Positions 125 to 63,895 of a DNA stretch of 64,000 nucleotides are shown here, in pieces (position 1 is the first letter of the stretch; every line of letters begins with the position of its first letter). Origin of the DNA: Nibribacter ruber (GTDB taxonomy: Bacteria; Bacteroidota; Bacteroidia; Cytophagales; Hymenobacteraceae); the NCBI RefSeq assembly GCF_009913235.1, contig NZ_CP047897.1:4215001-4279000 (forward strand), written 5' to 3'. The notes under the pieces are model-generated. The model was not told the origin of the DNA. It saw only the letters and a program-made list of their open reading frames with translations, and searched no databases. The position numbers and the translations under genes were made by a program.

Positions 125-162
125 CGTTTTTAGCTTCTTTTCCAGAAAACAGGCCAAAAACG
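125..162. repeat. 38-bp dispersed palindrome, copy 1
   Basis: Imperfect copy with left arm CGTTTTTAGCTTCTTTTC and right arm GAAAACAGGCCAAAAACG. It lies 22 bp after the terminator at 69-102, between two co-directional genes. Confidence 0.85.
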
Positions 163-479
163 ACATCACCTAATCCTTCCTGCCTCTATTAGTTAGTAGC
201 AGGAAGCCCCAACCCATGCAGTAGCGTCGCGGCACCCATACGAGGTGGCCCTTCGCAGCGATGGCCGGTTCAATTTGCCAAAGTCCTTCTCTGCCACAGA
301 AATGCACTCTTTAATACCGGCTTCCTCAAAAGATGAGCAAAGTCATTATCTGCAGTGACCATTGCAATGGGCCAGGGGAGAGGGTTCTGGTAATTTTACA
401 TCAGTTTCAAAGCGGGGGAAACACTCTTGCTTCTGATTCTGAAAAGCTCGCTGCCGGGCGCACAACCGGTATGAGACCA

Positions 480-1880
480 ATGAGTACTATTCTAAAAGAT
501 CCTGAAGCCTTCCGGGATACCATTTCTACGGTAGACAAAGACGGAAAACGGGTATGGGTGTACCCCAAAAAGCCCAGCGGAAAACTTTACCAGTACCGCA
601 AATATGTGAGCTACATGCTCTTGACCATGCTTTTCACCGGACCCTTCTGGAAAGTGAACGGGTTGCCGGTGCTCATGCTCAATTTCCCGGCGCGCAAGTT
701 CATCTTGTTCGGGCAGATTTTCTGGCCGCAGGATTTCTTCATTCTGCTGCTGGGGTTCATGGCCCTGGTGGTCTTCATCATCCTGTTCACGGTGGTGTAC
801 GGGCGCGTTTTCTGCGGCTGGATTTGTCCGCAGACCATCTTTATGGAGATGGTGTTTCGGCGCATTGAGTACTGGATTGAAGGAGACGCTCCTCAACAGA
901 AAGCACTGGACCGGGCACCGTTATCCTTTGAGAAACTCTGGAAGAAGACTGCCAAGCATACCCTTTTTATAGGAGTATCGTTTGTAATTGCCCATACGTT
1001 CTTGGCCTACATTATTGGGGTGGAAGACCTTTGGCAGATTGTCACAGACTCGCCGGCCAACCATATAGGTGACCTTGTTTCACTTGTTATGTTTACCGGG
1101 GTGTTTTACTTCATCTTTGCCAGGTTCAGAGAGCAGGTGTGTACCATCGTTTGTCCGTACGGCAGGCTGCAAGGCGTCATGCAAGACAAGCAGACCATCA
1201 CGGTGGCCTATGACTACCAGCGCGGCGAGCCCAGAGGCAAACTGCGTAAGAACCAGGAGCGCACCGAAGGCGACTGCATTGACTGCCACCAGTGCGTGCA
1301 AGTGTGCCCGACGGGCATTGACATCCGGAACGGTGCCCAGCAGATGGAATGCATTAACTGCACCGCCTGTATTGATGTCTGCAACAACATCATGGACCTG
1401 ATCAACAAGCCCCACGGCCTCATCAGGATGACGTCTGAGGAAAGCATTGAGCAGAAGAAGCCCTGGAAGGTTACGCCCCGCGTGAAGCTGTACACCACGG
1501 TGCTGGTGCTGTTGATGACCGCCTTCGGGACGCTGTTGGCTACCAGAAGCAATGTAGACGCCACCATCCTGCGCACGCCGGGCATGCTGTACCAGCAAAC
1601 CGACAAAGGCACCGTAACCAACCTCTACAACATCACGCTCATCAATAAGACAGATTCCCAACTTCCCATCACCTTAAAGCTGATCTCGCCTAAAGGAACG
1701 ATCAAGGTGGTGCAGACAGAGCTGGTGCTGCCGCGCCAAGGTTTGGTGGAAGGCGTGTTTTTCGCTGAAATCCCAAAAAACAGCCTAGAATCGGCGAGTT
1801 CAGAAATTAAGATTGGCGTGTACAGCGGTGAGCAACTCATCACCACCGAGACTACCAAGTTTCTGGGACCCGGTAAGTAA
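480..1880 (+). CDS. ccoG: CcoG, cbb3 cytochrome oxidase accessory protein (RdxA/FixG)
   Basis: CcoG is a membrane ferredoxin-like protein needed for cbb3 oxidase maturation; in proteobacteria it acts as a cupric reductase. The 466-residue product has several membrane helices, the hallmark motif FCGWICPQ near residue 120, a second CPYG cysteine near 228, two 4Fe-4S motifs around residues 265-300 (CIDCHQCVQVCP and CINCTACIDVC) and a C-terminal Ig-like FixG domain. An ATG at 333 is in frame, but homologues begin near the sequence EAFRDTISTVD, so the ATG at 480 is preferred. It lies directly upstream of ccoH and a SafE-type gene, a usual Bacteroidota order. Confidence 0.93.
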   Translation: MSTILKDPEAFRDTISTVDKDGKRVWVYPKKPSGKLYQYRKYVSYMLLTMLFTGPFWKVNGLPVLMLNFPARKFILFGQIFWPQDFFILLLGFMALVVFIILFTVVYGRVFCGWICPQTIFMEMVFRRIEYWIEGDAPQQKALDRAPLSFEKLWKKTAKHTLFIGVSFVIAHTFLAYIIGVEDLWQIVTDSPANHIGDLVSLVMFTGVFYFIFARFREQVCTIVCPYGRLQGVMQDKQTITVAYDYQRGEPRGKLRKNQERTEGDCIDCHQCVQVCPTGIDIRNGAQQMECINCTACIDVCNNIMDLINKPHGLIRMTSEESIEQKKPWKVTPRVKLYTTVLVLLMTAFGTLLATRSNVDATILRTPGMLYQQTDKGTVTNLYNITLINKTDSQLPITLKLISPKGTIKVVQTELVLPRQGLVEGVFFAEIPKNSLESASSEIKIGVYSGEQLITTETTKFLGPGK

Positions 1881-1984
1881 TGTGCTTATTTCTTGATGCG
1901 AAAATTTGGAGATGTGGAGATGTGAAAATGTCTCTGGGTCATTCGTCAAAGTAGAGAAGCAAATCAGAAATAGAAGTACTTAAA

Positions 1985-2040
1985 AGATGTCTTATGTCTT
2001 GTGTCTGACATCTTGCGTCTTCTAAAACATCTAACGTCTT
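1985..2040. repeat. Degenerate short tandem array (NNGTCTT units)
   Basis: The end of the ccoG-ccoH gap is a run of imperfect units such as ATGTCTT, GTGTCTG, ACATCTT and GCGTCTT, reaching to the ccoH start. Similar degenerate GTCT-rich arrays are common in Cytophagales intergenic DNA. No function is evident. Confidence 0.5.
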
Positions 2041-2046
2041 ATAAAA

Positions 2047-2520
2047 ATGTCAACTCATATAAATACCGCCCCAGCCAGTAAGAAGTCTTTTTTGCCTTAC
2101 ATCATCATTGCGGCGTTTTTACTATTCATCGGGTACATTGGCATGTTGGTGTATGGCACCATGCAGTCTGATGTAGACCTGGTAAGCAAAGATTACTACG
2201 CCAAAGAACTGGCCTATAACCAGCGCATGCAGCAGTTGAGCCACGCCCAGAACCTGGACCAGCCCATTCAAATCATAGCCGCGCAGGCCGCTGGACAGTT
2301 GGTGGTGCAGTTTCCGGCAGAATTGCAGAAGGCCACGGGCTCTGTGCTGTTTTTCAGGCCGTCTAACGTGCAGCTTGATTTTGAAGTGCCTCTGAAACTG
2401 AACGCCGACGGCTTGCAGCATTTCTCAACAGACTCTCTGCAGAAAGGCCTCTGGCGCGTGCAGGTGCTGGGTAAAGTAGGCGACAAAGAATATTTTCAGC
2501 AACAAGACATAACGCTCTAG
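2047..2520 (+). CDS. ccoH: CcoH/FixH family protein
   Basis: A 157-residue, single-span membrane protein. The hydrophobic helix at about residues 17-37 is followed by the FixH motif DLVSKDYYAKELAYNQRM, and a periplasmic beta-rich domain follows. FixH/CcoH is an assembly factor that associates with the cbb3 oxidase core and may take part in copper delivery. Its position 166 bp after ccoG and 4 bp before a SafE-type gene supports membership of the oxidase maturation operon. Confidence 0.85.
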   Translation: MSTHINTAPASKKSFLPYIIIAAFLLFIGYIGMLVYGTMQSDVDLVSKDYYAKELAYNQRMQQLSHAQNLDQPIQIIAAQAAGQLVVQFPAELQKATGSVLFFRPSNVQLDFEVPLKLNADGLQHFSTDSLQKGLWRVQVLGKVGDKEYFQQQDITL

Positions 2521-2524
2521 TACC

Positions 2525-3229: not shown

Positions 3230-3268
3230 AAATACATAGACCAACCAGACCTATCCAACTAACAGACT

Positions 3269-4162
3269 ATGAGTACTCCCAGAATCCTGCTTCCGTTTAA
3301 CTTCACAGATGCCTGCGTGACCGCCCTGCGGTACGCCTACCAGTTTGCCGCACACCTAAACGCAGACATCACCTTGTTGCACTGCACCGGCGACCTGCAA
3401 CTAACGCCTACCTTTGAAAGCCGGTTGCTGTTGCGCCTCAGAAGTTTTTCTCAACGTCACGCCAGCGCCTTCAGCAAGGGACTTGGCACAGAACCATTCA
3501 TTGATTGCGTGATTAAAAGCGGTCATCTCAGAGAACAGTTGGCCCAAGCGGTGGAAGAGTTCCAGATAGACATGCTGGTGTCGCCGGCGGGTTATCTTTT
3601 GGCGGGCCTGGCGCAGGAAGAAGTGGTGGCCTTGCCAGACCTGGTAGCGCGCCCCATCTTGCTCATACCGCCCAAAGCCCAATTTACGCCGCTGCGGGAG
3701 ATTGTCTTCACCCTGGACGTGACAGACACAGACCCATTGGTACTAGAGAGAGTGCAGAAACTGTCCCGTACGTTCAACGCACACCTTACCTTGTTGCACT
3801 TACACAGCCAGTTGGACGGCGTAAGCTTCTGCCAGGTGCAGAAAGCTGCCACCGCTCTTCAAAGCCAGCTGGAGTATTCTAACAAAGCCATCATCTGCCA
3901 GGAAGAAGATGATTTGGTAGAAGGCTTGAATAGCCTGGCTGGCAGCATGACGCCAGATTTATTTGTGCTGGCCACCCAAGACACGCATTTGCTGCAAGAG
4001 TATTTCTCCGGCGAATTTAAGAAGACCAACCCTTGCCATCTGCACACGCCGCTGCTCAACCTGTACCAAGCCAGAAGAACCGCTTGTTCAGCCAGTTGCC
4101 GCCACTGCAACCAGACCGTTTCAAACGCAGAAGCCACTGAGCAAAATGCGGTAATCAGCTAA
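3269..4162 (+). CDS. Universal stress protein (tandem UspA domains)
   Basis: A 297-residue cytoplasmic protein made of two UspA-like alpha/beta domains, about residues 1-135 and 143-265. The first starts RILLPFNFTDACVTALRYA and the second EIVFTLDVTDTDPLVLERV, both with the family's strand-helix pattern. The classical glycine-rich ATP-binding loop is not obvious, so it may not bind ATP tightly. The C-terminal tail carries a cysteine cluster (CSASCRHC), unusual for the family. It lies 39 bp after the SafE-type gene, which suits oxygen- or redox-linked co-regulation (inference). Confidence 0.85.
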   Translation: MSTPRILLPFNFTDACVTALRYAYQFAAHLNADITLLHCTGDLQLTPTFESRLLLRLRSFSQRHASAFSKGLGTEPFIDCVIKSGHLREQLAQAVEEFQIDMLVSPAGYLLAGLAQEEVVALPDLVARPILLIPPKAQFTPLREIVFTLDVTDTDPLVLERVQKLSRTFNAHLTLLHLHSQLDGVSFCQVQKAATALQSQLEYSNKAIICQEEDDLVEGLNSLAGSMTPDLFVLATQDTHLLQEYFSGEFKKTNPCHLHTPLLNLYQARRTACSASCRHCNQTVSNAEATEQNAVIS

Positions 4163-4176
4163 AAAGATTGAGGCAT

Positions 4177-4214
4177 CGTTTTTGGGCAGTTTCCCAGAAA
4201 ATAAGCCAAAAACG
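4177..4214. repeat. 38-bp dispersed palindrome, copy 2
   Basis: Lies 14 bp after the universal stress gene stop. Its right end forms the left edge of the long hairpin at 4209-4256, so two hairpins overlap here. Confidence 0.85.
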
Positions 4215-4256
4215 GAAGGTGCCGGCAGAAGAGATTCTGCCGGCACCTTCCGTTTT
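4209..4256. terminator. Long bidirectional terminator hairpin between convergent genes
   Basis: A perfect 22-bp stem (4209-4230 with 4235-4256) around a GAGA loop. It starts with AAAA and ends with TTTT, so both strands give an intrinsic terminator shape. It lies between the convergent universal stress and DUF5655 genes and overlaps repeat copy 2. Confidence 0.8.
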
Positions 4257-4729: not shown

Positions 4730-4767
4730 CGTTTTTGGCTTGTTTTCTGGAAAATAGGCCAAAAACG
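4730..4767. repeat. 38-bp dispersed palindrome, copy 3
   Basis: Lies between two minus-strand genes, 54 bp downstream of the signal peptidase stop and just upstream of the DUF5655 start. Confidence 0.85.
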
Positions 4768-4821: not shown

Positions 4822-5922
4822 TTAATTGACGAAACACAAGACCCGGTTCCACCTGATTCTATCTGTGAAACTGGCCGTAGAGTCAGTAGACATTCCTATC
4901 AACACGGGCTTGCCCACCACGTATTCTTCGGGCACAAACCCCCAGTACCTGGAGTCATGCGAGTTATGCCGATTGTCTCCCATCATGAAATAATAGTCCT
5001 GCTGAAAGGTGTAGTGGGTCATTAGTTTCCCGTTCTGGTACAGCAGACCGTTGTTCAAGGCCACGTTTTCATTACGTTCGTACACGCGTATGATCTTCTC
5101 ATACAGCGGCACCGTTTCTGCGGTAAGCGCCACCGTGGTTCCTTTTTTGGGAATGTACAGCGGCCCATAATGGTCCTGGTTCCAGGCATAGGTGGCCGGG
5201 GCAAATGGAAATACCCGCTCCTCGGCCTGTCCGGCCGGCATCTTTACTGGCGTCACGGTGGCAACGAAGTCAAATTCCTGTAATAGCCGGGCTTTTTCTG
5301 CCGAGGTAAACATGAGATATCCGCCCTCCGTCTGGTACAAGTCGGTGATGCCCTGCTTCTGGAAGAATTTTTCCTGCACATACTCCTTGGTCTGCACAAA
5401 GTAGCTGAACTGGAGGCCCGCCGGATTCTCTGCCTGTTTGCCATTGATGTACACCTGCCCGTCTTTTATCTGGAAAGAATCACCGGCCACGGCCACGCAG
5501 CGCTTCACCAAAAAGGTCTTCAGATCCAGGGGACGTTCAACTTCCTCTGGGTGGTTGAAAACGACGGCGTCATTGCGCTTCACCTGGGAGAGGCCGGGTA
5601 ACCGCCAAGAAGGAAGCTGCACCAAGTCTGAGTAGGAGGAAAGTTTGGTGCCCCAGATGGTCTGGTGAGTCAAAGGAACCTGCAACGGGGTAATGGGCGT
5701 ACGGGAACCGTAGTGGAGCTTGCTTACAAACAGGTAATCGCCGGTCATGAGGGAGCTTTCCATGGAGGAGGTGGGCACGGCGAAGGCTTCAAAGGTGAGC
5801 CACCTGATGACCATGGCGCAGAGAATGGCAAACTTGAGCGCATCTCCCCACTCGCGGAGGGCAGATTTCTTAACGGCTGGCGCAGAGCGCTGCTGTTTAT
5901 TTCTTTGAAAAGGTAACCGCAT
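4822..5922 (-). CDS. lepB: Signal peptidase I
   Basis: Type I signal peptidase, a membrane-anchored Ser/Lys protease that removes signal peptides at the outer face of the inner membrane. The 366-residue protein has one N-terminal membrane helix (about 28-48). The catalytic Ser-Met is in PTSSMESS (Ser53), the general-base lysine is in LVKRCVAVAGD (Lys140), and the late box reads GDNRHNSHDSRYWG. A long insertion between the lysine and this box is typical of Bacteroidota enzymes. It appears monocistronic. Confidence 0.95.
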   Translation of the reverse strand: MRLPFQRNKQQRSAPAVKKSALREWGDALKFAILCAMVIRWLTFEAFAVPTSSMESSLMTGDYLFVSKLHYGSRTPITPLQVPLTHQTIWGTKLSSYSDLVQLPSWRLPGLSQVKRNDAVVFNHPEEVERPLDLKTFLVKRCVAVAGDSFQIKDGQVYINGKQAENPAGLQFSYFVQTKEYVQEKFFQKQGITDLYQTEGGYLMFTSAEKARLLQEFDFVATVTPVKMPAGQAEERVFPFAPATYAWNQDHYGPLYIPKKGTTVALTAETVPLYEKIIRVYERNENVALNNGLLYQNGKLMTHYTFQQDYYFMMGDNRHNSHDSRYWGFVPEEYVVGKPVLIGMSTDSTASFTDRIRWNRVLCFVN

Positions 5923-6912: not shown

Positions 6913-6950
6913 CGTTTTTGGCTTATTTTCTGGAAAAGAGGCTAAAAACG
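6913..6950. repeat. 38-bp dispersed palindrome, copy 4
   Basis: Lies 33 bp beyond the stop of the minus-strand DUF1456 gene and upstream of the L,D-transpeptidase gene. Confidence 0.85.
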
Positions 6951-6983: not shown

Positions 6984-7361
6984 TTATCTTTTGTCTTTGA
7001 AAGGCCTTCGGTCATCAGGTTGGTTTCTGTCTCTGGACTGCTCTCGGTCCCTTGAATCTTCCCGGTCCCGGCCGCCATCCCGGTCTCTGGAGGTAGAAGT
7101 ACTTGGCCGCTGAGCCTTTTCTGATGACAGGCCTTTCTTTGGTTCCATGGGGCCGCGCATGTGAATGACCAACCCGTTCAGGAAGTTGCGCAGGAGTTGG
7201 TCGCCGCAGGGTTGGTAGTTAGGGTGGTCTTCTTTTCTGAAGATGGCGCCCAGTTCGCTTTTAGACACGTTGAAGTCTACCAGCTTAAGAATGTCAATGA
7301 TCTGGTCGTCGCGCAGTTGCAAGGCCACGCGCAGTTTTTTGAGGATATCGTTGTTGGTCAT
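6984..7361 (-). CDS. DUF1456 (YehS-like) protein, single repeat with Arg/Asp tail
   Basis: A 125-residue protein starting MTNNDILKKLRVAL, the usual start of DUF1456 proteins. An upstream in-frame start at 7418 adds 19 residues without similarity and is rejected. DUF1456 proteins normally hold two similar ~70-residue units (about 150 residues). Here only one unit is seen (residues 1-70, ending NFLNGLVIHMRGP). It is followed by a low-complexity tail rich in SRDRDGGRDRE-type repeats. Function is unknown; the basic-acidic tail suggests nucleic-acid or protein contacts (inference). Confidence 0.75.
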   Translation of the reverse strand: MTNNDILKKLRVALQLRDDQIIDILKLVDFNVSKSELGAIFRKEDHPNYQPCGDQLLRNFLNGLVIHMRGPMEPKKGLSSEKAQRPSTSTSRDRDGGRDREDSRDREQSRDRNQPDDRRPFKDKR

Positions 7362-10604: not shown

Positions 10605-10642
10605 CGTTTTTGGCCTGTTTTCTAGAAAACAGGCCAAAAACG
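10605..10642. repeat. 38-bp dispersed palindrome, copy 5 (perfect arms)
   Basis: Both 18-base arms are exact complements around a TA centre. It sits between convergent genes, 25 bp after the YciI-like stop and 26 bp beyond the DUF2628 stop. Confidence 0.9.
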
Positions 10643-15849: not shown

Positions 15850-15887
15850 CGTTTTTGGCTTGTTTTCCGGAAAACAAGCCAAAAACG
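15850..15887. repeat. 38-bp dispersed palindrome, copy 6 (perfect, extended to 48 bp)
   Basis: The arms are perfect (GGCTTG paired with CAAGCC). The outside flanks AACGT and ACGTT are also complementary, so the palindrome runs 15845-15892 without a mismatch. It lies 24 bp beyond the stop of the 15912 gene. Confidence 0.9.
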
Positions 15888-17265: not shown

Positions 17266-17303
17266 CGTTTTTGGCTTGTTTTCTAGAAAACAAGCCAAAA
17301 ACG
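17266..17303. repeat. 38-bp dispersed palindrome, copy 7 (perfect, extended to 52 bp)
   Basis: Perfect arms around TA. The flanks GAAGCGC and GCGCTTC extend the palindrome to 17259-17310. It lies 35 bp beyond the porP stop. Confidence 0.9.
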
Positions 17304-26341: not shown

Positions 26342-26379
26342 CGTTTTTGGGCTGTTTTCCAGAAAACAGCCCAAAAACG
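26342..26379. repeat. 38-bp dispersed palindrome, copy 8 (extended to 54 bp)
   Basis: Arms GGGCTG/CAGCCC are fully complementary. Flanks AAGAACCC and GGGTTCTT extend the stem to 26 bp (26334-26387). It lies 32 bp after the stop of the zinc-ribbon gene. Confidence 0.9.
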
Positions 26380-26790: not shown

Positions 26791-26828
26791 CGTTTTTAGC
26801 CTGTTTTCTGGAAAATAAGCCAAAAACC
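26791..26828. repeat. 38-bp dispersed palindrome, copy 9
   Basis: The terminal motif is altered (AAAAACCG instead of AAAAACG). It lies 29 bp after the stop of the small acidic protein gene. Confidence 0.75.
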
Positions 26829-27959: not shown

Positions 27960-27997
27960 CGTTTTTGGGCTGTTTTCTAAGAAAAAACCCAAAAACG
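27960..27997. repeat. 38-bp dispersed palindrome, copy 10
   Basis: Lies 38 bp after the classical terminator, 82 bp after the stop of the YGNM gene and upstream of the SCO operon. Here the repeat is present in addition to a true terminator. Confidence 0.85.
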
Positions 27998-33269: not shown

Positions 33270-33307
33270 CGGTTTTGGATTAATTCTTGAAAAAGACGGC
33301 AAAAACG
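33270..33307. repeat. 38-bp dispersed palindrome, copy 11 (degenerate)
   Basis: The ends CGGTTTTGG and CAAAAACG are kept, but the centre (ATTAATTCTTG) is changed. It lies 20 bp after the EEP gene stop. Confidence 0.6.
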
Positions 33308-33957: not shown

Positions 33958-33995
33958 CGTTTTTAGCCTATTTTCTGGAAAAGAAGCCAAAAACG
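33958..33995. repeat. 38-bp dispersed palindrome, copy 12
   Basis: Far from any called gene end. If the structured tract is transcribed on the plus strand, this copy would lie near its 3' side. Confidence 0.8.
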
Positions 33996-34285: not shown

Positions 34286-34323
34286 CGTTTTCAGGCAATT
34301 TCCCTTAAAACAGTCTAAAAACG
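34286..34323. repeat. 38-bp dispersed palindrome, copy 13 (degenerate)
   Basis: Ends 4 bp from the stop of the cation diffusion gene. The arms keep CGTTTT and TAAAAACG with several mismatches between. Confidence 0.65.
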
Positions 34324-37705: not shown

Positions 37706-37743
37706 CGTTTTTGGGCTATTTCTCGGGAAACAGGCCAAAAACG
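37706..37743. repeat. 38-bp dispersed palindrome, copy 14
   Basis: Between convergent genes, 19 bp after the STAS stop and 5 bp from the histidine kinase stop. Confidence 0.85.
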
Positions 37744-45222: not shown

Positions 45223-45260
45223 CGTTTTTGGCCTGTTTCGTGTAAAACAAGCCAAAAACG
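45223..45260. repeat. 38-bp dispersed palindrome, copy 15
   Basis: Starts 2 bp after the stop of the CheB gene, so the stop codon abuts the hairpin. It precedes the terminator at 45275. Confidence 0.85.
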
Positions 45261-46547: not shown

Positions 46548-46890
46548 AGGCAGGAGTAAGAGGTAGGCAGATATTTTAACGGCTTTTCACTTAAGGAAGA
46601 TGCACGCCCTGTAAACCTACAAAATTTATAAGAAAGGCAGGGCCAGGGAGAGAGCCGCCGCCGGTGGTCGTTTTTGGCGGGTTTTCCAGGAAAGAGACCA
46701 AAAACGAGCATGGGTAGAAATTGGCTTTTCCCGAGGATAGGGAAGGCTGTATGTTGCCAGAAGAGAGGTAAGGCGCTAATAAATAGCCTTTTGACAATTT
46801 ATATTCTCCGTATAAATACTGCTTTTAGAGCAACCCCTGCCCGGGAAATACGTTTTACTTGGAATCTATAAAAATTTGGAGTTTCCCCCT
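46548..46890. other. Divergent intergenic region between nhaA and the winged-helix gene
   Basis: About 340 bp. It holds one palindrome copy at 46669-46706, unusual because it lies upstream of both genes. Other sequence is AT-rich, with no clear operator. Confidence 0.5.
46669..46706. repeat. 38-bp dispersed palindrome, copy 16 (in a divergent promoter region)
   Basis: Lies 122 bp upstream of nhaA and 185 bp upstream of the winged-helix gene, not at a 3' end. This argues against a termination-only role. Confidence 0.85.
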
Positions 46891-47249: not shown

Positions 47250-47287
47250 TGTTTTTGGGCTGTTTCCTGAGAAACTGCCCAAAAACG
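47250..47287. repeat. 38-bp dispersed palindrome, copy 17
   Basis: Starts with T instead of C. It lies between the convergent winged-helix and peptidase genes, 7 bp from the peptidase stop. Confidence 0.8.
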
Positions 47288-48331: not shown

Positions 48332-48369
48332 CGTTTTTGGCCTCTTTTCCGGGAAACAACCTAAAAACG
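48332..48369. repeat. 38-bp dispersed palindrome, copy 18 (in a divergent region)
   Basis: Lies 80 bp upstream of the peptidase start and within the artificial upstream extension of that frame. Confidence 0.85.
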
Positions 48370-50248: not shown

Positions 50249-50286
50249 CGTTTTTGGCCTCTTTCCCAGAAAACAGGCCAAAAACG
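50249..50286. repeat. 38-bp dispersed palindrome, copy 19
   Basis: Lies 18 bp after the XRE regulator stop and upstream of the PLD-type gene. Confidence 0.85.
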
Positions 50287-50304: not shown

Positions 50305-51096
50305 TTACGCTAGTGACGTGCCTTTACCTAAAAGCCCCTGCACCAGACTCTCCAATCGGGCCAGTCGCTCTTCTATAGAGGACGGGGACTTGAGGTACGT
50401 GCTATACACGCCTTCAATGCGCCAAATTTCTCTCACGTCTTTTACGGGCACCGCCAGGTACTCATAATCTGGGTTGTCGGCTTTCATGGACAGCGCGCCT
50501 TCCTGGGTGAGGCCTTGGTAGCGGCGGGCCATGATCTGCGCGTCTGTGACTACTACATACAATTCATTGGGTTGCAGATCTTCGGGCTGAGCAGGTAGGG
50601 CGGCGCAATACAGCAAATCGCCTGGACGGAGCCCGTGCTGCTGGTACTGCATCTCAGAGCCCTGGTGCTCAAAGGCGCGGTGCAAGGTAGTACTGGCGTT
50701 GGGCAAGGCAATGAAGGGCAAGCTTTCCAAAAACTCGCGCTCCTGCCTTCTGGTAAGATACGCTGCCTGCAATGCTCCCATCACCAAAACCGCCTTCTGC
50801 GCGGAAGGCTCAGGCGTATCTGCTACTTTTTTGAGCAGCTGGCTCTGGTGTAGGTCCCGTTTAAAGATGTCAAAGCCGTATAAATCATTGACGGTGAGTT
50901 CTTTGGTGATGAGAAGGTCCAGGCTTACGCCGAAGTGCCGGGCAATCTGAATGAGCGTGTCAATCTTGGGTTCAGAGCGGCCTTCTTCATAGGCACCCAC
51001 GCTAGGGCGCGCTAAATCAAATAGTTGCGCGAAACCGGCCTGGCTCAAATTCTTGACCGTCCTGATTTTCTTAATGTTCTTCCCGATGCACGACAT
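50305..51096 (-). CDS. XRE family transcriptional regulator with C-terminal LexA/S24-like domain
   Basis: A 263-residue protein. Residues ~5-60 are a helix-turn-helix XRE domain (IRTVKNLSQAGFAQLFDLARPSVGAYEEG). The C-terminal half resembles a peptidase S24/LexA-like fold (GDLLYCAALPAQPEDL, LYVVVTDAQIMARRYQG), as in phage-type repressors, but the usual Ser/Lys pair is not evident. A possible role is stress-response control of the cluster on its other side (inference). It is divergent from the small membrane protein gene at 51387. Confidence 0.85.
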   Translation of the reverse strand: MSCIGKNIKKIRTVKNLSQAGFAQLFDLARPSVGAYEEGRSEPKIDTLIQIARHFGVSLDLLITKELTVNDLYGFDIFKRDLHQSQLLKKVADTPEPSAQKAVLVMGALQAAYLTRRQEREFLESLPFIALPNASTTLHRAFEHQGSEMQYQQHGLRPGDLLYCAALPAQPEDLQPNELYVVVTDAQIMARRYQGLTQEGALSMKADNPDYEYLAVPVKDVREIWRIEGVYSTYLKSPSSIEERLARLESLVQGLLGKGTSLA

Positions 51097-52782: not shown

Positions 52783-52820
52783 CGTTTTTGGGCTGTTTTC
52801 CAGGAAATAGCCCAAAAACG
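52783..52820. repeat. 38-bp dispersed palindrome, copy 20
   Basis: Lies 12 bp after the pspA stop; the arms are GGGCTG and TAGCCC type. Confidence 0.85.
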
Positions 52821-53065: not shown

Positions 53066-53103
53066 CGTTTTTGGCCTGTTTTCTGAGAAAGAGGCCAAAA
53101 ACG
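53066..53103. repeat. 38-bp dispersed palindrome, copy 21
   Basis: Inside the pspA-yqiJ gap, about 245 bp after the previous copy and not next to a called gene end. Confidence 0.85.
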
Positions 53104-56343: not shown

Positions 56344-56381
56344 CGTTTTTGGGCTTTTTTCTAGGAAACAGGCTAAAAACG
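56344..56381. repeat. 38-bp dispersed palindrome, copy 22
   Basis: Lies 84 bp after the flotillin stop and 42 bp after the hairpin at 56269, before the coiled-coil membrane protein gene. Confidence 0.85.
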
Positions 56382-57339: not shown

Positions 57340-57343
57340 CATC

Positions 57344-57381
57344 TGTTTTTGGCCTGTTTTCTAAGAAATAGGCTAAAAACG
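57344..57381. repeat. 38-bp dispersed palindrome, copy 23
   Basis: Starts with T, otherwise a good copy; it is 142 bp after the coiled-coil stop and 88 bp before the AAA gene. Confidence 0.8.
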
Positions 57382-57468: not shown

Positions 57469-60400
57469 ATGAGCACTGTTACTCCAGATACCAATACTCC
57501 CACTTCAAATGCCCCCGTTCAGTTAGAAGGCGGCACCTATGAAATTCTGCGTAACCGTTTAGCCAAGAGCGGCGGCGAGCTGCGCGGGTTGCTGGACCAA
57601 CTCAACCAGGAACGGAAAGAAGTCTTCGGGGCGATTGAAACCAAACTGCTTACCACGGAGCGCGTCACCACAGAGCACAACTGCGTGCCCTGGGACATGG
57701 TGCCGGTAGGAGAACAGCTGCTGTTTGGCTACAACGTGCACCTGGGCCTGAAGACCGACGTGGAACTGAGCGACGTGTTCAGCGTCTATCTTTACCAGAA
57801 CCACACTTTTCAGCAGCAGGGGCTGGAGCTTATCAACCACGCGGAATTTCTGGACGAGTTTCAGAAGCTGTACAAATACTACAAGAACACGCAGTTTGTC
57901 AAGTTTGCCGTCCAGGGCGTGCACCTGTTCATGGTGTTTCGCATAGGGAAAGGCGTCAATGACATCAAAACCTTTAAATGGGCGCTACAGGCCGGAAAAA
58001 TCACCTACCTGGACAACCGCTCAGACCATGAATACAGCTTCCCCAACCAGCATGACTTCGCCTGGAAACGCGTTGCCAGAGAGGCGCACCGCCCGGGCAA
58101 GCACCCTCACATCTCCATTGAAGACAAGGTGTTTGTGGAAACCATTGGCGGCGACCTCACTATCAAGGTAGAAGACAATACAGACACCGGGCAGGGCATT
58201 TACTCTGAGCCCGTGGAGGACAAAGACCAGACCCTGGATGATTCTGAGCTGTATTACGCCCTCATCGGGAACCTGATTCTGCTCAAGATCAAGCCCTACC
58301 GTGAAAACAACTACCGCTACATCGTTTACAACGCCAAATTGAAAGAGGCGCGGCGCATTGACGCCCTTCAGGATTGCTGCGTGTTTCTGCCAGAGGACCA
58401 AGGCATCATTTACGCCTATGGCTATTACCTGCAGACCGGCGAGTTCAAAAGCTTTGACAACGGCTTGCAGGAGATGCTGTTTGAGAAACGCATTGCCTCG
58501 CCCAACGGCGAAGATTTCCTGTACGTCTTCTACAACAAGCAGACTGGCGTGTACCTGCTCCTGAGCTACAACCTCATCACCCAAAAGATTGAGAGCCCCA
58601 TCATCTGCCACGGGTACGCCATCTATGAGAACGGCGAGCTCTGCTATTTCAGGGCAGACGAGGAGCCCAAAAAGCACCATGCCCTCCAGATTTGGCAGAC
58701 GCCGTACATTGGCAGCAACTACACCATTCCGGTTACCAAAGAGAGTTTCCTGTACAAGATAGGCAACAAAGAAATTGTGCGGGCCATGGCCGAGTGCACC
58801 GAGATTCTGACCCTGGTCCACAAAGAAGACTCCTATGACAACCTGTACCTGGACCTCATCAAGCTCACCTCAGACTTACTGGATTCCTACCACTGGTTGG
58901 GCAAAAAAGAGACGTTTGCGTTAGCGCAGCCCCTCACGGCCATCAGGCAGACGGCCACCGCCGCGGTTGAGGAATTTGAGAAGGTCATAAGCATTAGAAA
59001 AAACACCCAGACTCAGGTAGAAACGGTATTGGGCACGGCAGATGCGTTGTTGGCCAAACTCAAGCTGCAGAGCGCCGGGCACATTAATGAGTATGTGAAA
59101 GCCTTAGCGGATGTGCGTTCAGTGCGCGGCGAAGTGATTTCTTTGAAGGAGTTGCGCTACGCAGACTTGGTGCGCATTGAGCAGTATGAGGCCCAGTTGC
59201 AAAGTTTCAGCCAGGAGCTGGCCAACCAGACTGTAGACTTTCTGCTCAAGCCAGATGCGCTGGCTCCCTACCAGCTACGGGTAAGTGACATTACCGCCAG
59301 CATAGACAAGATTGCCAAAGTGGTGGAGGCTGACGCCACTGACAAGGAGATTGCGGCCGTGAGTACAGAGCTGGAGATGCTCATTGAGATTGTGAGCAAC
59401 CTCAAGATGGAAGATGCCACCCAGACCACGCGCATAGTAGACGCCATCTCCACCATTTATGCGTCCTTCAACAAAACCAAAGCCACCCTCAAACGCAAGC
59501 GGCAGGAGCTGTTGAGCAGTGAAGGCCAAGCCGAGTTCAACGCACAAATCAAACTCATCAGCCAGAGCGTCATCAACTTTTTGGACGTCTGTGACACGCC
59601 CCAGAAATGCGAAGAATACCTGACCAAGCTCATGGTGCAATTAGAGGAGCTGGAAGGGCGCTTCTCTGAGTTTGACGCCTTTTTAGAAATCATAGCCGAC
59701 AAGCGTGAAGAGATTTACTCTGCGTTTGAGAGCAAGAAAGCCGCCCTGCAGGAAGCCCGCAACAAACGCGCCACCACCCTGCAACAAGCCGCCGACCGCA
59801 TTCTCAAAGCCGTCCAAAGCCGCCTGGGCAAGCTGGGCACCGTGGCCGAAATCAACGGTTACTTCGCCTCAGATTTGATGATGGAGAAGGTGCGCACCAC
59901 CGTAGACGAGCTTCTGGCTATGGGCGACACGGTGAAAGCCGATGCCATCCAGAGCCGCCTGAAAACCCTTCGCGAGGACGCTGTGCGCCAGCTCAAAGAC
60001 AAGAGCGAACTGTTTGTAGAAGGCCAGAACGTGCTCAAGTTTGGCACCCACCATTTTACGGTAAACACCCAGCCGCTGGAACTGAGCATTGTGCACCGTG
60101 ACGAAGCCATGTACTACCACCTCACCGGCACCAGCTTCTTTGAAAAGATAATAGATGAGCGTTTCCTGAGCTTCCGGCCCGTTTGGGAGCAGTCGCTTGT
60201 CTCAGAAAATAACCAGGTGTACCGCGCTGAGTACCTGGCGTTCCAGATTCTGCAGGCCGCGCAGCAGGCAAAAAACATAGCCGCCCCGGCAGATGGCCAG
60301 GAGGGAACATTGCAGCTCCTAACGTTAGACCAATTGCATACGCTGTCGTCAGGAGAGTTGCTGGAATACGTGCAGAAGTTCATGGCCTCCCGGTTCAATG

Positions 60401-62454
60401 AGGGCTACCTGAAGGGCGTGCACGACCAGGACGCAGCCCTGATCCTGACCTCACTGGTGCGCCTGTTCAAGACGGCAGACCTGCTCCGCTACACCGCCAC
60501 TAATCGCGCGCTGGCCCGTTGTTTTTGGGCTGTTTTCCTGAAAGAAGGCCAAAAACAGCTGTTCCATCACCAGCTTAAAGGCGTAAGCGCCATCTTACAG
60601 GTGTTCCCAGAAACGCATCAGTTTGACAACATCAAGGCAGATCTGCAGCGTGAGCTTAAGGTATTCCAGCAGGAGAGTGGTTTGTTGCCAGAGGCTGATC
60701 CATTAGCCGCTGGCGAGTACCTGTTCTTTGAACTCACCCGCAACGACCAGTTCATCTCCAGCGCTCAGGCCGCCGAATTGGTGCAGAACTTCCAGCAGTA
60801 CCTTTCTGAGAAAAAGGCGTGGACCATGTTTGAAGCATCAGTCTCGGCTTTGGAAGAAAACAAAGTTGAGCAGCTGGAACTGTTGCAACATTGGCTCAAG
60901 GCGTACCTGTCGCAGGCAAATCTGGCAGCAGATATTGAATATGTACCAGAGGCAGCCGTGCTCTTATTTTTACAAGACCTGAAGCCCAAGCAAGTGGTGC
61001 ACGCCCACCTACGTGAGGTCTTGGCAGGCATGCAGGGCACGCACCCGCTGTTGCAGGAGCAAAAGTATCAATTGCACTTCCACGGGTTCCAGCAGAAACT
61101 ACATGGCTATGAGGAGCAGGTGGTGAGCCAGTTTAAGGCGTTCCATGCGCTTAAGCACCAGATGACCGCCGCCTTTGAAGAGGAGTTGCGGTTGCAGGAG
61201 TTCAAGCCGCGGGTCATGTCTTCCTTCGTCCGGAATAAGTTGATTGACCAGGTGTACCTGCCGCTCATTGGCGCCAACCTGGCCAAGCAGATGGGCACCG
61301 CCGGTGAAACCAAACGCACCGATCTCATGGGCATGCTGCTATTGCTGTCGCCGCCGGGTTATGGCAAGACCACGCTCATGGAGTACATCGCCAACCGCTT
61401 GGGCATCATCTTCATGAAGATTAACGGACCGGCCATCGGGCACCAGGTCACCGCGCTGGACCCTACGGAGGCTCCCAACGCCGCCGCCCGCGAAGAGCTG
61501 GAAAAGCTGAACCTTTCTTTTGAGATGGGCGACAACGTCATGATCTACCTGGACGACATTCAGCACTGTAATCCTGAATTCCTGCAGAAGTTTATCTCGC
61601 TCTGCGATGCCCAGCGCAAGATTGAGGGCGTATACAAAGGCCGCAGCCGAACTTATGACTTCCGGGGGAAGAAAGTGTGCGTGGTCATGGCAGGAAACCC
61701 CTACACCGAGACGGGTGACAAGTTCCGGATCCCTGACATGCTAGCCAACCGCGCCGATATTTACAACCTGGGCGACATCATTGGGGATACCGAGGACGTG
61801 TTCAAGCTGAGCTATCTGGAAAACTCACTTACCTCCAATACCGTGCTGGCAAAGCTGGCAGCCAAAAGCCAGAAAGACGTGTACGCGCTGGTGCAACTGG
61901 CCCAGACCGGCAGCAATGAAGGCATGGAACTGGAAGCAAGCCACACCGCCGAGAAAATCAACGAGTACGTGGCCGTCCTGAAAAAGCTTCTGCATGTGCG
62001 CGACGTCCTGTTGAAGGTGAACCTGGAGTATATCCGGTCGGCGGCCCAAGCCGATGAGTACCGCACTGAGCCTCCGTTCAAACTGCAGGGATCGTACCGC
62101 AACATGAACAAGCTGGCAGAGAAGATCATGCCCATCATGAATGAGGCCGAACTGCACACCCTCATCTTGTCGCATTACCAATCAGAGTCCCAGACCCTGA
62201 CCACGGGCGCCGAGGCCAATATGCTCAAGTTCAAGCAGCTCATCGGGGTAGCCACGCCAGAGGAAACCCAGCGTTGGGAAGACATCAAAACCGCCTTCGT
62301 CAGAAACAACAAGCTCAAAGGATTCGGGGATGGCAACCAGGTAGGGCAGGTGCTGGCGCAGATGGAGAACATCTCTGACGGCCTTTCTGGAATTAAGCAG
62401 GTGCTGGGAGAGAGGCAGGTTCTGACCACTCCGCCAACCCCTCTGTCAAATTGA
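57469..62454 (+). CDS. Giant DUF3686-AAA ATPase (annotated DNA repair ATPase family)
   Basis: A 1661-residue soluble protein. The N-terminal ~500 residues match DUF3686 (PWDMVPVGEQLLFGYNVHLG, PFKSFDNGLQ-type strands), followed by long coiled coils (~500-880), a mixed central region and a C-terminal AAA domain. Walker A is PPGYGKTTLMEYI (~residue 1296) and Walker B MIYLDDIQHCN (~1357). Database names call it a DNA repair ATPase, but biochemistry is lacking. A palindrome copy lies in frame at 60520-60557 and codes for CFWAVFLKEGQKQ (residues 1018-1030). It probably works with the PspA/flotillin genes upstream (inference). Confidence 0.87.
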   Translation: MSTVTPDTNTPTSNAPVQLEGGTYEILRNRLAKSGGELRGLLDQLNQERKEVFGAIETKLLTTERVTTEHNCVPWDMVPVGEQLLFGYNVHLGLKTDVELSDVFSVYLYQNHTFQQQGLELINHAEFLDEFQKLYKYYKNTQFVKFAVQGVHLFMVFRIGKGVNDIKTFKWALQAGKITYLDNRSDHEYSFPNQHDFAWKRVAREAHRPGKHPHISIEDKVFVETIGGDLTIKVEDNTDTGQGIYSEPVEDKDQTLDDSELYYALIGNLILLKIKPYRENNYRYIVYNAKLKEARRIDALQDCCVFLPEDQGIIYAYGYYLQTGEFKSFDNGLQEMLFEKRIASPNGEDFLYVFYNKQTGVYLLLSYNLITQKIESPIICHGYAIYENGELCYFRADEEPKKHHALQIWQTPYIGSNYTIPVTKESFLYKIGNKEIVRAMAECTEILTLVHKEDSYDNLYLDLIKLTSDLLDSYHWLGKKETFALAQPLTAIRQTATAAVEEFEKVISIRKNTQTQVETVLGTADALLAKLKLQSAGHINEYVKALADVRSVRGEVISLKELRYADLVRIEQYEAQLQSFSQELANQTVDFLLKPDALAPYQLRVSDITASIDKIAKVVEADATDKEIAAVSTELEMLIEIVSNLKMEDATQTTRIVDAISTIYASFNKTKATLKRKRQELLSSEGQAEFNAQIKLISQSVINFLDVCDTPQKCEEYLTKLMVQLEELEGRFSEFDAFLEIIADKREEIYSAFESKKAALQEARNKRATTLQQAADRILKAVQSRLGKLGTVAEINGYFASDLMMEKVRTTVDELLAMGDTVKADAIQSRLKTLREDAVRQLKDKSELFVEGQNVLKFGTHHFTVNTQPLELSIVHRDEAMYYHLTGTSFFEKIIDERFLSFRPVWEQSLVSENNQVYRAEYLAFQILQAAQQAKNIAAPADGQEGTLQLLTLDQLHTLSSGELLEYVQKFMASRFNEGYLKGVHDQDAALILTSLVRLFKTADLLRYTATNRALARCFWAVFLKEGQKQLFHHQLKGVSAILQVFPETHQFDNIKADLQRELKVFQQESGLLPEADPLAAGEYLFFELTRNDQFISSAQAAELVQNFQQYLSEKKAWTMFEASVSALEENKVEQLELLQHWLKAYLSQANLAADIEYVPEAAVLLFLQDLKPKQVVHAHLREVLAGMQGTHPLLQEQKYQLHFHGFQQKLHGYEEQVVSQFKAFHALKHQMTAAFEEELRLQEFKPRVMSSFVRNKLIDQVYLPLIGANLAKQMGTAGETKRTDLMGMLLLLSPPGYGKTTLMEYIANRLGIIFMKINGPAIGHQVTALDPTEAPNAAAREELEKLNLSFEMGDNVMIYLDDIQHCNPEFLQKFISLCDAQRKIEGVYKGRSRTYDFRGKKVCVVMAGNPYTETGDKFRIPDMLANRADIYNLGDIIGDTEDVFKLSYLENSLTSNTVLAKLAAKSQKDVYALVQLAQTGSNEGMELEASHTAEKINEYVAVLKKLLHVRDVLLKVNLEYIRSAAQADEYRTEPPFKLQGSYRNMNKLAEKIMPIMNEAELHTLILSHYQSESQTLTTGAEANMLKFKQLIGVATPEETQRWEDIKTAFVRNNKLKGFGDGNQVGQVLAQMENISDGLSGIKQVLGERQVLTTPPTPLSN
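60520..60557. repeat. 38-bp dispersed palindrome, copy 24 (inside the AAA ATPase ORF)
   Basis: TGTTTTTGGGCTGTTTTC, then CT, then a right arm ending GGCCAAAAACA. It is in frame and codes for 13 residues with no stop. All other copies are intergenic. Confidence 0.8.
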
Positions 62455-62473
62455 TAGCCGAATCCTAAAAAGT

Positions 62474-62511
62474 CGTTTTTGAGCTGTTTTACCCAAAACT
62501 GCCCAAAAACG
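62474..62511. repeat. 38-bp dispersed palindrome, copy 25 (extended to 48 bp)
   Basis: Flanks AAAGT and ACTTT lengthen the stem to 62469-62516. It lies 19 bp after the AAA stop. Confidence 0.85.
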
Positions 62512-62555
62512 ACTTTAGTCAACATTAAGCGATTATCCACCTAGTCTTAACCTGA

Positions 62556-62969
62556 ATGGCCCAGTTTCATCATACATTTTCAGACCCGTTCAGCTCAGAG
62601 GAAGTGGATTTGGGTTACGTAGACGGTGGCCAGCTCAAGCAGGTTTTCCGGGAATTTGCGTGGGAGGAGTGGCTTCAGAAGATGGAAGACTCTGCCATTG
62701 ATGATTTTCATTTTTCGCCCACCTTGAATGTTTTTCAAAAAGAGCAGAAGCGGGAAATGCTGCTGTCTGCCCTAAAAGACAAGGGGAAGCTTATTTTCTA
62801 TGTGTCTTACCGGCGGCCGCAAAAGGTGAAAAGGCTGTTCGGGCTCATGGAAAGGTTTGAGGAGAAATACACCACTGAGGTATTAGACCAAACCAAAGAG
62901 CAAGCCGCCCAACTGCTTCAGGCATTCATAGAGGGAGACGCAGCCTACCTGAATGAAAAAGTAAAGTAA
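62556..62969 (+). CDS. Hypothetical protein after the DUF3686-AAA ATPase
   Basis: A 137-residue soluble protein with aromatic and acidic residues in the first half (FHHTFSDPFSSEEVDLGYVDGG, FREFAWEEWLQKM) and a helical second half. No family recognised. It is 101 bp after the AAA gene with a palindrome copy between, reads the same way and may be the last gene of the membrane-stress cluster. Confidence 0.6.
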   Translation: MAQFHHTFSDPFSSEEVDLGYVDGGQLKQVFREFAWEEWLQKMEDSAIDDFHFSPTLNVFQKEQKREMLLSALKDKGKLIFYVSYRRPQKVKRLFGLMERFEEKYTTEVLDQTKEQAAQLLQAFIEGDAAYLNEKVK

Positions 62970-63142
62970 ACGCGGCACATTAGCTCCTTTGGCTATTTTT
63001 GGTGAGAATACACAGGCGGTAAGAGAAAGAGCGGTGCCCTTTCCGGGAGGGAGTCTACTTCTTGGTTAGGGGGACTTTCCAGATACCCAGCCTTTCCTTA
63101 ACTTACCCGCTCTATCGGATCATATCCTTCACCTACAAAGCC

Positions 63143-63649
63143 ATGGACTTAAATCAAATATTGTTGCAAGAGTTTACCCGCGAAGCCAAAAGCACCCGCC
63201 GAATGCTGGAACGGGTGCCGGACGAAAAGTTGGACTGGCAGCCGCACGCCAAAAGCTTTTCCCTGGGTAAACTGGCCGCCCACGTGGCAGAAATCCCCAG
63301 TATGTTCATCAGCAATGTTCTGCAAACCGAGGAGACAGACTTTGTCAAGCAGAAATTCAAGCCCTTTCACGCAAGCACCACCCAGGAACTTGTAGACTTC
63401 CATGACCAGGTGGTGGCCCAGGTCACCGAGGCCCTCACCCAAGCCTCAGCTGAGGAGTTTGGCAAGACCTGGACGTTGCGGCACGGAGAGAACGTGATCA
63501 TGGCCATGCCCAAGGCGGCCGTCATCAGATCCGTGGCCATGAACCACCTTATCCATCACCGCGGGCAGCTGTCTGTGTACTTGCGTCTGCTGGACGTTCC
63601 GGTGCCGGGCATGTACGGCCCCACCGCCGATGAGGCCTTTGCTGGCTAA
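63143..63649 (+). CDS. DinB family protein
   Basis: A 168-residue helical protein of the DinB/YfiT-like four-helix bundle, metal-binding enzymes acting on thiols or nucleophiles such as bacillithiol. The likely metal histidines are in KLAAHVAEIPSMF and the C-terminal MNHLIHHRGQLSVYLRLL. The ATG at 63143 is chosen over 63062 because DinB proteins start near DLNQILLQEF. The substrate is unknown. Confidence 0.85.
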   Translation: MDLNQILLQEFTREAKSTRRMLERVPDEKLDWQPHAKSFSLGKLAAHVAEIPSMFISNVLQTEETDFVKQKFKPFHASTTQELVDFHDQVVAQVTEALTQASAEEFGKTWTLRHGENVIMAMPKAAVIRSVAMNHLIHHRGQLSVYLRLLDVPVPGMYGPTADEAFAG

Positions 63650-63675
63650 CTGTTCACCCACTTTTACCAAAGTCC

Positions 63676-63713
63676 CGTTTTTAGCTTCTTTTCTGAGAAA
63701 TAGGCTAAAAACG
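63676..63713. repeat. 38-bp dispersed palindrome, copy 26
   Basis: Lies 26 bp after the DinB stop; two extra C/G pairs on each side lengthen it to 42 bp. Confidence 0.85.
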
Positions 63714-63857
63714 GGTTTTGTGTTTTCCCTCCTTGCCCCAAAGGGCCTTCATTGCGCTTAGAACAGGCAAACTTTTGTGAGACTGTTGAAAAATTTCCTC
63801 CATCCGGCAAAACCCAACCTGCTAGAAAGTCCGTATTTCTACCATGACTTAAACATG

Positions 63858-63895
63858 CGTTTTTTGCTGGTTTTAAGGGAAACAGGCTATAAACG
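63858..63895. repeat. 38-bp dispersed palindrome, copy 27 (degenerate)
   Basis: Keeps CGTTTTTTG and AACAGGC...AAACG with mismatches. It is 145 bp after copy 26 and not next to a called gene. Confidence 0.6.

What the first reader, a model, noticed from the sequence alone, without database searches (positions are those of the whole stretch)
125..63895. Family of 27 dispersed 38-bp palindromes, mostly just after stop codons
Copies share CGTTTTTGGCCTGTTTTC, two central bases and the reverse-complement arm. I count 27 in 64 kb. About 20 begin within 100 bp after a stop codon (for example 4177, 10605, 45223, 62474). Arm changes are often compensatory: GGCTTG/CAAGCC, GGGCTG/CAGCCC and GGCCTG/CAGGCC occur in different copies, so the hairpin, not the sequence, is kept. 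Each RNA strand ends in an A-run (AAAAACG), not a U-run, so this is not the usual intrinsic terminator. It resembles REP elements, which act in mRNA stability, termination or chromosome organisation.
Basis: partly seen in the sequence, partly recalled or inferred. Interest (0 to 1): 0.8.

Follow-up and report, generated by a model that had tools for sequence, protein, structure and literature searches.

The report
Genus-specific palindromes marking gene ends
The chromosome carries well over a thousand copies of a 38-base mirror-symmetric DNA sequence, mostly just after genes; related Rufibacter species keep the sites at the same genes but, in at least one species, spell them differently throughout the genome, which points to a protein reading them as DNA rather than to RNA hairpins alone.

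Summary
The window has 27 copies, 19 within 100 bp after a stop codon. The genome (genus Rufibacter) has about 1,580 by one degenerate pattern; all 16 genomes of the genus have 416-2,140. By the own half-site, 134 other family genomes are at background.

The interpretation needs correcting. In this genome the two arms vary independently (193 sites, z about -0.6): the sequence, not the hairpin, is kept. A minority, e.g. 15850, 17266 and 26342, are perfect palindromes with longer stems, often followed by T-tracts, like intrinsic terminators. A RAYT is not needed: a genome with 1,259 copies has none detectable.

Unexpectedly, other species keep sites at the same gene ends, yet one has its own genome-wide dialect there. 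That resembles DNA-uptake-sequence dialects, but the unit is a 38-bp dyad.

Best reading: a two-fold DNA site for an unidentified, co-evolving protein at ends of transcription units, perhaps a boundary or roadblock; a minority serve as terminator cores. Protein and function are inferred, not shown. Results against: arms co-vary in relatives, and one relative fills divergent gaps equally.

The parts
125..162 (.). copy 1
   Evidence: 3 mismatches of 36 to consensus
4177..4214 (.). copy 2, 14 nt after stop of 3269-4162
4730..4767 (.). copy 3, 54 nt after stop of 4822-5922 (-)
6913..6950 (.). copy 4, 33 nt after stop of 6984-7361 (-)
10605..10642 (.). copy 5, exact consensus and perfect palindrome, stem extends only 1 bp; 25 nt after stop
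15850..15887 (.). copy 6, perfect palindrome, stem extends 5 bp (hairpin class)
17266..17303 (.). copy 7, perfect palindrome, stem extends 7 bp (hairpin class)
26342..26379 (.). copy 8, perfect palindrome, stem extends 8 bp then T-rich tail: terminator-like core
   Evidence: -42.4 kcal/mol
26791..26828 (.). copy 9, 29 nt after stop; orthologous gap occupied in G014 and G015
27960..27997 (.). copy 10, 82 nt after stop
33270..33307 (.). weak copy, 20 nt after stop
   Evidence: 11 mismatches
33958..33995 (.). copy 11
34286..34323 (.). weak copy, 4 nt after stop of 34328-35323 (-)
   Evidence: 9 mismatches
37706..37743 (.). copy 12, convergent gap of 62 bp
45223..45260 (.). copy 13, 1 nt after the stop; same offset in G014
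46669..46706 (.). copy 14, divergent gap
47250..47287 (.). copy 15, 7 nt after stop of 47295-48167 (-)
48332..48369 (.). copy 16, divergent gap
50249..50286 (.). copy 17, 18 nt after stop of 50305-51096 (-)
52783..52820 (.). copy 18, 12 nt after stop; sites also present in relatives' gap
53066..53103 (.). copy 19, 383 bp upstream of 53449; a site at 382-387 bp in the five named relatives
56344..56381 (.). copy 20, 84 nt after stop of 54088-56259; this gap is occupied in 8 of 8 distinct relatives (13 loci)
57344..57381 (.). copy 21, gap before 57469; occupied in 6 of 6 distinct relatives whose loci cover it
60520..60557 (.). copy 22, in frame inside the DUF3686 ATPase gene 57469-62454
62474..62511 (.). 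copy 23, 19 nt after stop
63676..63713 (.). copy 24, 26 nt after stop; same offset in G014
63858..63895 (.). copy 25, weaker
   Evidence: 7 mismatches

Best explanation
Each copy is a double-stranded DNA site of about 40 bp with two-fold symmetry: two GTTTT boxes 11 bp apart per arm, mostly a YR step at the centre. It is read by a dimeric or tetrameric DNA-binding protein of Rufibacter that we did not identify. The sites sit mainly at the ends of transcription units. A bound protein there would work in both directions, as a boundary that stops read-through and colliding polymerases (roadblock, supercoil or domain insulation). The protein's specificity shifts between species and the sites follow, giving genome-wide dialects. 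A minority of sites have longer perfect stems, often with a U-tract, and serve as cores of intrinsic terminators. Shown: symmetry with independent arms in this genome, gene-end placement, presence throughout the genus, conserved occupancy, dialects, terminator-like minority. Inferred: the protein, the boundary function, the co-evolution.
For: Independent arms with near-invariant T positions. Half-sites at <=2 mismatches almost never single: 218 with a partner arm at <=9 mismatches, 1 without. No significant pooled G.T over A.C bias on the sense strand and no U-tract in the bulk class (2.15 T after v 2.14 A before, in 8 nt). Occupied gaps, own: convergent 47 of 59, tandem 89 of 172, divergent 20 of 57; similar in G012 and G015, G006 and, roughly, G014. 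Gene ends compared with 7 distinct relatives: 37 both occupied, 8 only own, 9 only relative, 26 neither. Dialects: GTTTTCGGGCTCATTTC 1180+1170 in G014 and 3-85 per strand in the 15 others; GTTTTTGGCCTGTTTTC 1066+1091 here and 70+76 in G014. Site-bearing ends have more separate terminator-like structures than masked ends without sites (164 of 640 v 11%), so the sites do not replace terminators. Even spread over 20 sampled stretches.
Against: No protein was found. Information content (50.7 bits) far exceeds the roughly 11-12 bits needed to find 1,582 places. Columns within an arm are not independent (summed mutual information z 9-20; up to 0.22 bits among the pairs listed). Arms co-vary in relatives: z 2.75 in G012, 6.3 in G006, 2.65 in G002, 2.8 in G015; in G006 G.T exceeds A.C (90 v 58, p 0.011). 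Strict terminator-like structures that overlap tandem sites are commoner on the sense than on the antisense strand: 26 v 17 in 76 sites here, 34 v 12 in 83 (G012), 24 v 9 in 65 (G006). In G002 divergent gaps are as often occupied (28 of 37) as convergent ones (30 of 39). Offsets from the stop codon are only weakly conserved (Spearman 0.17, p 0.32).
Confidence: 0.42

Rival explanations
1. RNA hairpin: the copies act in the 3' UTR as stem-loops that stabilise mRNA or terminate transcription.
For: Perfect copies exceed expectation: 15 of 193 v 2-3 here; 30 of 152 with at most one non-pair in G006 v about 4; 23 of 80 in G014 v about 10. Extended-stem copies have U-tracts: 28 of 61 with >=5 T in 8 nt v 35 of 527 in the bulk. 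Terminator-like structures overlapping tandem sites are commoner on the sense strand: 84 v 38 over 224 sites of three genomes. Three of six folded copies beat all 200 shuffles.
Against: No compensatory signal over all sites in this genome, no significant sense-strand G.T bias pooled, divergent gaps occupied too (20 of 57 here); the other three folded copies were matched by 4, 8 and 53 of 200 shuffles.
Confidence: 0.18
2. Molecular drive: the dyad is a signal for DNA uptake or another biased copying process (like DNA uptake sequences), which pushes all sites of a genome towards one consensus; gene-end placement is simply where 38 bp are tolerated.
For: Hundreds to thousands of copies, genus-wide, dialects, excess information, T-tracts one helical turn apart. 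DUS in Neisseriaceae have dialects and form inverted pairs at terminators (PMC3630211, passages).
Against: Half-sites practically never occur without a partner arm and copies are nearly absent from genes here (178 of 184 intergenic or beyond the last gene of a stretch), whereas intragenic DUS are common (PMC3630211, passage; that DUS mostly occur singly is recalled). But 64 of 224 hits in G015 and 32 of 233 in G002, with looser motifs, fall in called genes. No competence data.
Confidence: 0.15
3. REP-like mobile element copied into gene ends by a transposase.
For: Size, palindromy, copy number and downstream placement match REPs (PMC3733652, passages); three Y1_Tnp genes here, one of them with a site on either side within 0.4 kb (sites occur every 2.4 kb or so anyway).
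Against: No Y1_Tnp detected in G012; occupancy conserved across species while dialect changes; intragenic copy aligns without an indel to orthologues of other genera with different residues; no one-sided tag.
Confidence: 0.1
4. The near-perfect minority arises by replication template switching at quasi-palindromes, without selection.
For: In many perfect copies perfection runs on for several bp beyond the site.
Against: The extended-stem class is followed by U-tracts in the sense direction (4.02 v 2.15 T in 8 nt) and 61 of 64 lie in tandem or convergent gaps.
Confidence: 0.05

Closest known systems
REP / BIME elements (GTAG- and CGTC-tagged palindromes)
   Same: Short dispersed palindromes, mostly between tandem and convergent genes and downstream of coding regions; some inside replication and repair genes (PMC3733652, passages).
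   Different: No one-sided tag, arms not co-varying in the bulk here, no RAYT needed, occupancy conserved across species, dialect changed at conserved places.
DNA uptake sequences (Neisseriaceae) and their dialects
   Same: Thousands of copies, clade-restricted, genome-wide dialects, some forming inverted pairs at terminators (PMC3630211, passages).
   Different: The unit is a 38-bp dyad, not a 10-12-mer (length recalled); half-sites almost never alone; few intragenic copies here.
Intrinsic terminators
   Same: A minority have long perfect stems, often followed by U-tracts.
   Different: The bulk have no U-tract and, in this genome, no pairing constraint; separate terminator-like structures coexist.
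Roadblock sites of DNA-binding proteins (LacI in bacteria, Reb1 in yeast)
   Same: Proposed mode of action only: a bound protein stops polymerase (PMC10310618, passages).
   Different: Genome-wide in number and at gene ends; no protein known here.

Membership tests
REP element (GTAG/CGTC superfamilies) | 20-40 bp palindromic repeat in high copy, mostly extragenic and downstream of genes | tested here: met
   38 bp, about 1,580 copies; 178 of 184 sampled copies intergenic or beyond the last gene of a stretch; 128 of 193 within 100 bp after a stop
REP element (GTAG/CGTC superfamilies) | GTAG or CGTC tag at one end | tested here: not met
   Symmetric ends (mostly YCG...CGR), no tag in the flank profile of 74 tandem copies
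REP element (GTAG/CGTC superfamilies) | Association with a RAYT transposase | tested here: not met
   No Y1_Tnp match at E<=0.001 in G012 (1,259 copies); Y1_Tnp genes present in genera without the element. Of the three own genes, one has sites on both sides within 0.4 kb, the others a nearest site about 0.4-0.5 kb away on one side
REP element (GTAG/CGTC superfamilies) | Stem-loop as the conserved feature | tested here: inconclusive
   Not met by the bulk here: arms independent over 193 sites. Met by a minority: 15 perfect copies here, and covariation in relatives, strongest in G006
DNA uptake sequence | Short motif that also occurs singly and inside genes (singly: recalled) | tested here: not met
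   218 half-sites with a partner arm v 1 without; 3 of 184 copies fully inside genes
DNA uptake sequence | Clade-specific dialects | tested here: met
   G014 and G006 dialects
DNA uptake sequence | Promotes uptake of DNA | not testable with these tools
   needs transformation assays
Intrinsic terminator | Paired stem followed by a U-tract | tested here: inconclusive
   28 of 61 extended-stem copies have >=5 T in 8 nt, 35 of 527 of the bulk; overlapping terminator-like structures lean to the sense strand
Site of a symmetric DNA-binding protein | Symmetric preferences, arms independent | tested here: met
   In this genome; in relatives arms co-vary to some degree
Site of a symmetric DNA-binding protein | A protein that binds it | not testable with these tools
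   none identified

The most novel reading that the evidence does not exclude
Rufibacter marks most ends of its transcription units with a DNA site read by a fast-evolving, genus-specific protein, a bacterial counterpart of an insulator or roadblock factor; when the protein's specificity changes, well over a thousand sites at conserved gene ends are rewritten together into a new dialect.
Probability: 0.3. Interest if true: 0.88.

Novelty: new variant of a known kind. Interest (0 to 1): 0.66.

Why it matters
REP-like palindromes have long been discussed as hairpins, parasites or nucleoid sites. Here a family can be compared across a genus: occupancy is conserved while the spelling changes, and pairing can be separated from sequence. 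This makes testable whether dispersed gene-end palindromes are protein-read boundaries, and what can rewrite more than a thousand dispersed sites together.

Tried and rejected
Rfam scan of the window at gathering thresholds: no hit. IMG/VR, exact dyad pattern of the own spelling: none; plasmids (PLSDB), own consensus: none. De novo gapped palindromes in 200 kb each of G113 and G027: nothing comparable; the Pontibacter and Hymenobacter sets are orthologous loci, so their counts are inflated by shared ancestry. RAYT as driver: rejected. Site as substitute for terminators: the first table suggested it, a masked control removed it (it does not merge neighbouring predictions, so its rates are higher than those); predicted terminators are nearly as common on the antisense strand, so these predictions are weak. 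A motif iteration in G027 drifted to a different AT-rich pattern (33 hits v 3 in the control); with the G015 profile G113, G027, Pontibacter and Hymenobacter were at control level. Independence of columns within arms was not met, so I do not use it. The Bacteroidetes LexA motif reported for Hymenobacteraceae, CTAA-N5-TTAG (PMC8565304, passages), does not match the site. Literature: searches for Rufibacter with palindrome (2 papers, unrelated titles) or with genome, intergenic and repeat (0), Hymenobacteraceae with palindromic (2 papers) and Cytophagales with repeat terms (344 papers, 8 listed, none bacterial by title) gave no description; only listings were seen, apart from passages of PMC8565304. 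RepRanger's paper (abstract and passages) has no occurrence of Rufibacter, Hymenobacter or Pontibacter in its main text; its table lists other Bacteroidota with thousands of predicted REPs. These searches cover an open-access library only.
Full report
WHAT IS THERE. The window is positions 4215001-4279000 of a 4.35-Mb single-contig genome. A window protein finds its best named relatives in Rufibacter (R. ruber 94%, R. glacialis 90%, R. roseus 90%), so the organism is a Rufibacter or very near it; the species is not settled. The half-site CGTTTTTGGCCTGTTTTC has 44 matches at <=3 mismatches in the window (0.10 expected) and 1381+1430 in the genome (control 2+4). Full dyads: 27 in the window. A degenerate dyad pattern finds 1,582 in the genome (control 1). 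In 464 kb of own sequence (window plus 20 stretches) I scored 184 copies with a mismatch cut-off and 193 with a profile. Of 219 half-sites at <=2 mismatches, 218 had a partner arm at <=9 mismatches: the dyad is the unit. The 20 stretches carry 8.25 sites per 20 kb with variance 6.4, an even spread.

WHERE IT SITS. With a home-made gene caller (383 genes; starts are imprecise), the 184 copies fall as tandem 92, convergent 58, divergent 19, beyond the first or last gene of a stretch 9, inside a gene 3, overlapping a gene 3. Occupied gaps of >=38 bp by the profile: convergent 47 of 59, tandem 89 of 172, divergent 20 of 57. In tandem gaps 66 of 94 sites lie within 60 bp of the upstream stop and 23 of 94 within 60 bp of the next start. 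128 of 193 sites start within 100 bp after a stop, against 29% of intergenic positions. Relatives: convergent, tandem, divergent 33 of 41, 92 of 155, 16 of 47 in G012; 27 of 38, 87 of 161, 16 of 46 in G015; 28 of 36, 81 of 155, 15 of 42 in G006; 30 of 39, 94 of 153, 28 of 37 in G002; 15 of 19, 42 of 83, 9 of 19 in G014. G002 is the exception: its divergent gaps are filled as often as its convergent ones.

SEQUENCE OR HAIRPIN. Over 184 copies, each of the 18 column pairs shows Watson-Crick pairs at about the rate of shuffled partners (z -2.1 to +2.8); summed over 193 sites z is -0.7 and -0.6 on repeat. T4-T6 and T15-T16 are at 97-98%. In 78 oriented copies sense-strand G.T pairs number 81 and A.C 68; in 414 oriented sites of six genomes 547 and 494 (p 0.11), with G006 leaning to G.T (90 v 58, p 0.011). 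The bulk here behaves like a two-fold DNA recognition site. Against this simple picture, arms do co-vary in relatives: z 2.75 in G012, 6.3 in G006, 2.65 in G002, 2.8 in G015.

THE MINORITY. That covariation goes with a class of near-perfect palindromes: own 15 perfect v 2-3 expected; with at most one non-pair, G006 30 of 152 v about 4 and G014 23 of 80 v about 10. I defined a hairpin class (at most 2 non-pairs, stem running >=4 bp beyond the site) among the 964 sites of five genomes: 64 sites, 61 of them oriented, against 757 and 527 in the bulk class (at least 3 non-pairs, extension at most 2); intermediate sites and those near stretch ends were dropped. After the stem, 8 nt hold 4.02 T on average v 2.15 in the bulk; >=5 T in 28 of 61 v 35 of 527 (p 2e-14). 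61 of 64 lie in tandem or convergent gaps. In the window these are 15850, 17266 and 26342; the last folds at -42.4 kcal/mol with a U-rich tail.

TERMINATORS. Site-bearing ends hold separate terminator-like structures in 164 of 640 cases, against 11% in masked ends without sites, so the sites do not replace terminators. Structures that overlap tandem sites lean to the sense strand: 26 v 17 of 76 here, 34 v 12 of 83 in G012, 24 v 9 of 65 in G006; separate ones do not. This favours some termination role for part of the sites. The predictor is weak: in all gene ends sense and antisense rates are similar.

WHO HAS IT. All 16 genomes of the genus match: 101-1430 half-sites per strand for the own spelling, 416-2,140 dyads for the degenerate pattern. 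The other 134 of 150 family genomes are at background for the own half-site. A far-off dialect could escape that search, although it does find G014 and G015. The degenerate dyad gave 0-1 in the 8 other family genomes searched with it, all of one genus, and profiles gave control-level counts in G113, G027, Pontibacter and Hymenobacter samples. In the order sample of 118 genomes, the 117 besides the own have 0-5 dyads except G150 (11) and G252 (49), which carry other repeats.

CONSERVED PLACES, CHANGED SPELLING. Around gene 54088-56259 I compared 13 loci; by identical percentages and sites, five named loci (R. ruber, roseus, glacialis, hautae, SYSU D00344) are the same genomes as G010, G008, G001, G002 and G007, so 8 relatives are distinct. 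The gap after the gene holds a site in 8 of 8, and the gap before 57469 in 6 of 6 whose loci cover it, although the sites at 52783 and 53066 lie outside the stretches that blastn aligns with R. ruber. For orthologous neighbours, own-occupied gaps were also occupied in 8 of 8 (G014) and 7 of 7 (G015) cases; gaps empty here were occupied in 2 of 6 and 2 of 5 (p 0.015 and 0.045). Over 80 gene-end comparisons with seven distinct relatives: 37 both, 8 own only, 9 relative only, 26 neither (odds ratio 13, p 4e-7, rows not independent). Offsets agree only loosely (Spearman 0.17, not significant; median difference 26 nt v 41 shuffled, p 0.026). Yet G014 spells its sites CGTTTTCGGGCTCATTTC (80 sites in 200 kb, control 0, 51.7 bits), four changes per arm. 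Genome-wide that spelling (without its first base, <=2 mismatches) occurs 1180+1170 times in G014 and 3-85 per strand in the 15 others, while the own spelling gives 70+76 in G014. G006 differs at column 7 (T 11% v 94% here). G015 keeps the density with a loose motif (224 sites in 400 kb, 23.7 bits, control 1), though 64 of its 224 hits fall in genes.

WHAT IT MEANS. Conserved occupancy plus a genome-wide change of spelling needs something that acts on all sites at once: a recognising protein whose specificity shifted, or a biased copying process as for DNA uptake sequences. The excess information (50.7 bits v 11-12 needed) leaves the second open. The intragenic copy at 60520 lies in frame; Adhaeribacter, Pontibacter, Botryobacter and Hymenobacter orthologues align there without an indel but with other residues, and the Adhaeribacter locus L013 and Pontibacter locus L014 hold no site at <=14 mismatches, so that copy probably arose by substitution, not insertion. 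A RAYT is not needed: G012 has 1,259 dyads and no Y1_Tnp match at E<=0.001.

VERDICT. Real, abundant and, as far as searched, genus-specific. It works like a protein-read DNA site at gene ends with a terminator-like minority. It is not a member of the tagged REP superfamilies, nor of uptake sequences as defined. The protein, the function and the driver of the dialects are open.

Noticed in passing
window 57469-62454, copy at 60520: In-frame dyad inside a gene for a DUF3686 'ATPase involved in DNA repair'; also found in R. roseus, R. hautae and SYSU D00344, with residues unlike other genera.
   Followed up: partly
G252 (other family), several contigs: 49 matches to what looks like a different dispersed palindrome of GTTTTGGGC...GCCCAAAAC type in an incomplete genome.
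   Followed up: no
G150 (other family): Eleven matches, nearly all one near-identical dispersed repeat, GTTTTTAGCCTATTTTGTCAAAAAACTGG....
   Followed up: no
G014 sites (L222-L231): Arms seem to come in two flavours (GGGCTCATTTC and GGCTTCGTTTT) around a TG/CA centre, hinting at polarity within the dyad (30 of 80 sites printed).
   Followed up: no
centre of the own copies: The two central bases favour TG (62) and CA (52) over TA (22) and CG (8) in 184 copies; in six genomes TG and CA are equally common on the sense strand of tandem sites (77 v 76).
   Followed up: partly
G002 sample (L182-L201): Divergent gaps are occupied in 28 of 37 cases, unlike the other sampled genomes.
   Followed up: no
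window 54088-56259: This gene has no protein match in 7 of 16 genus genomes although it is well conserved where present.
   Followed up: no
window 18359-24781: 2,140-aa surface protein with PKD and Ig_7 domains and a CHU_C type IX secretion signal.
   Followed up: no
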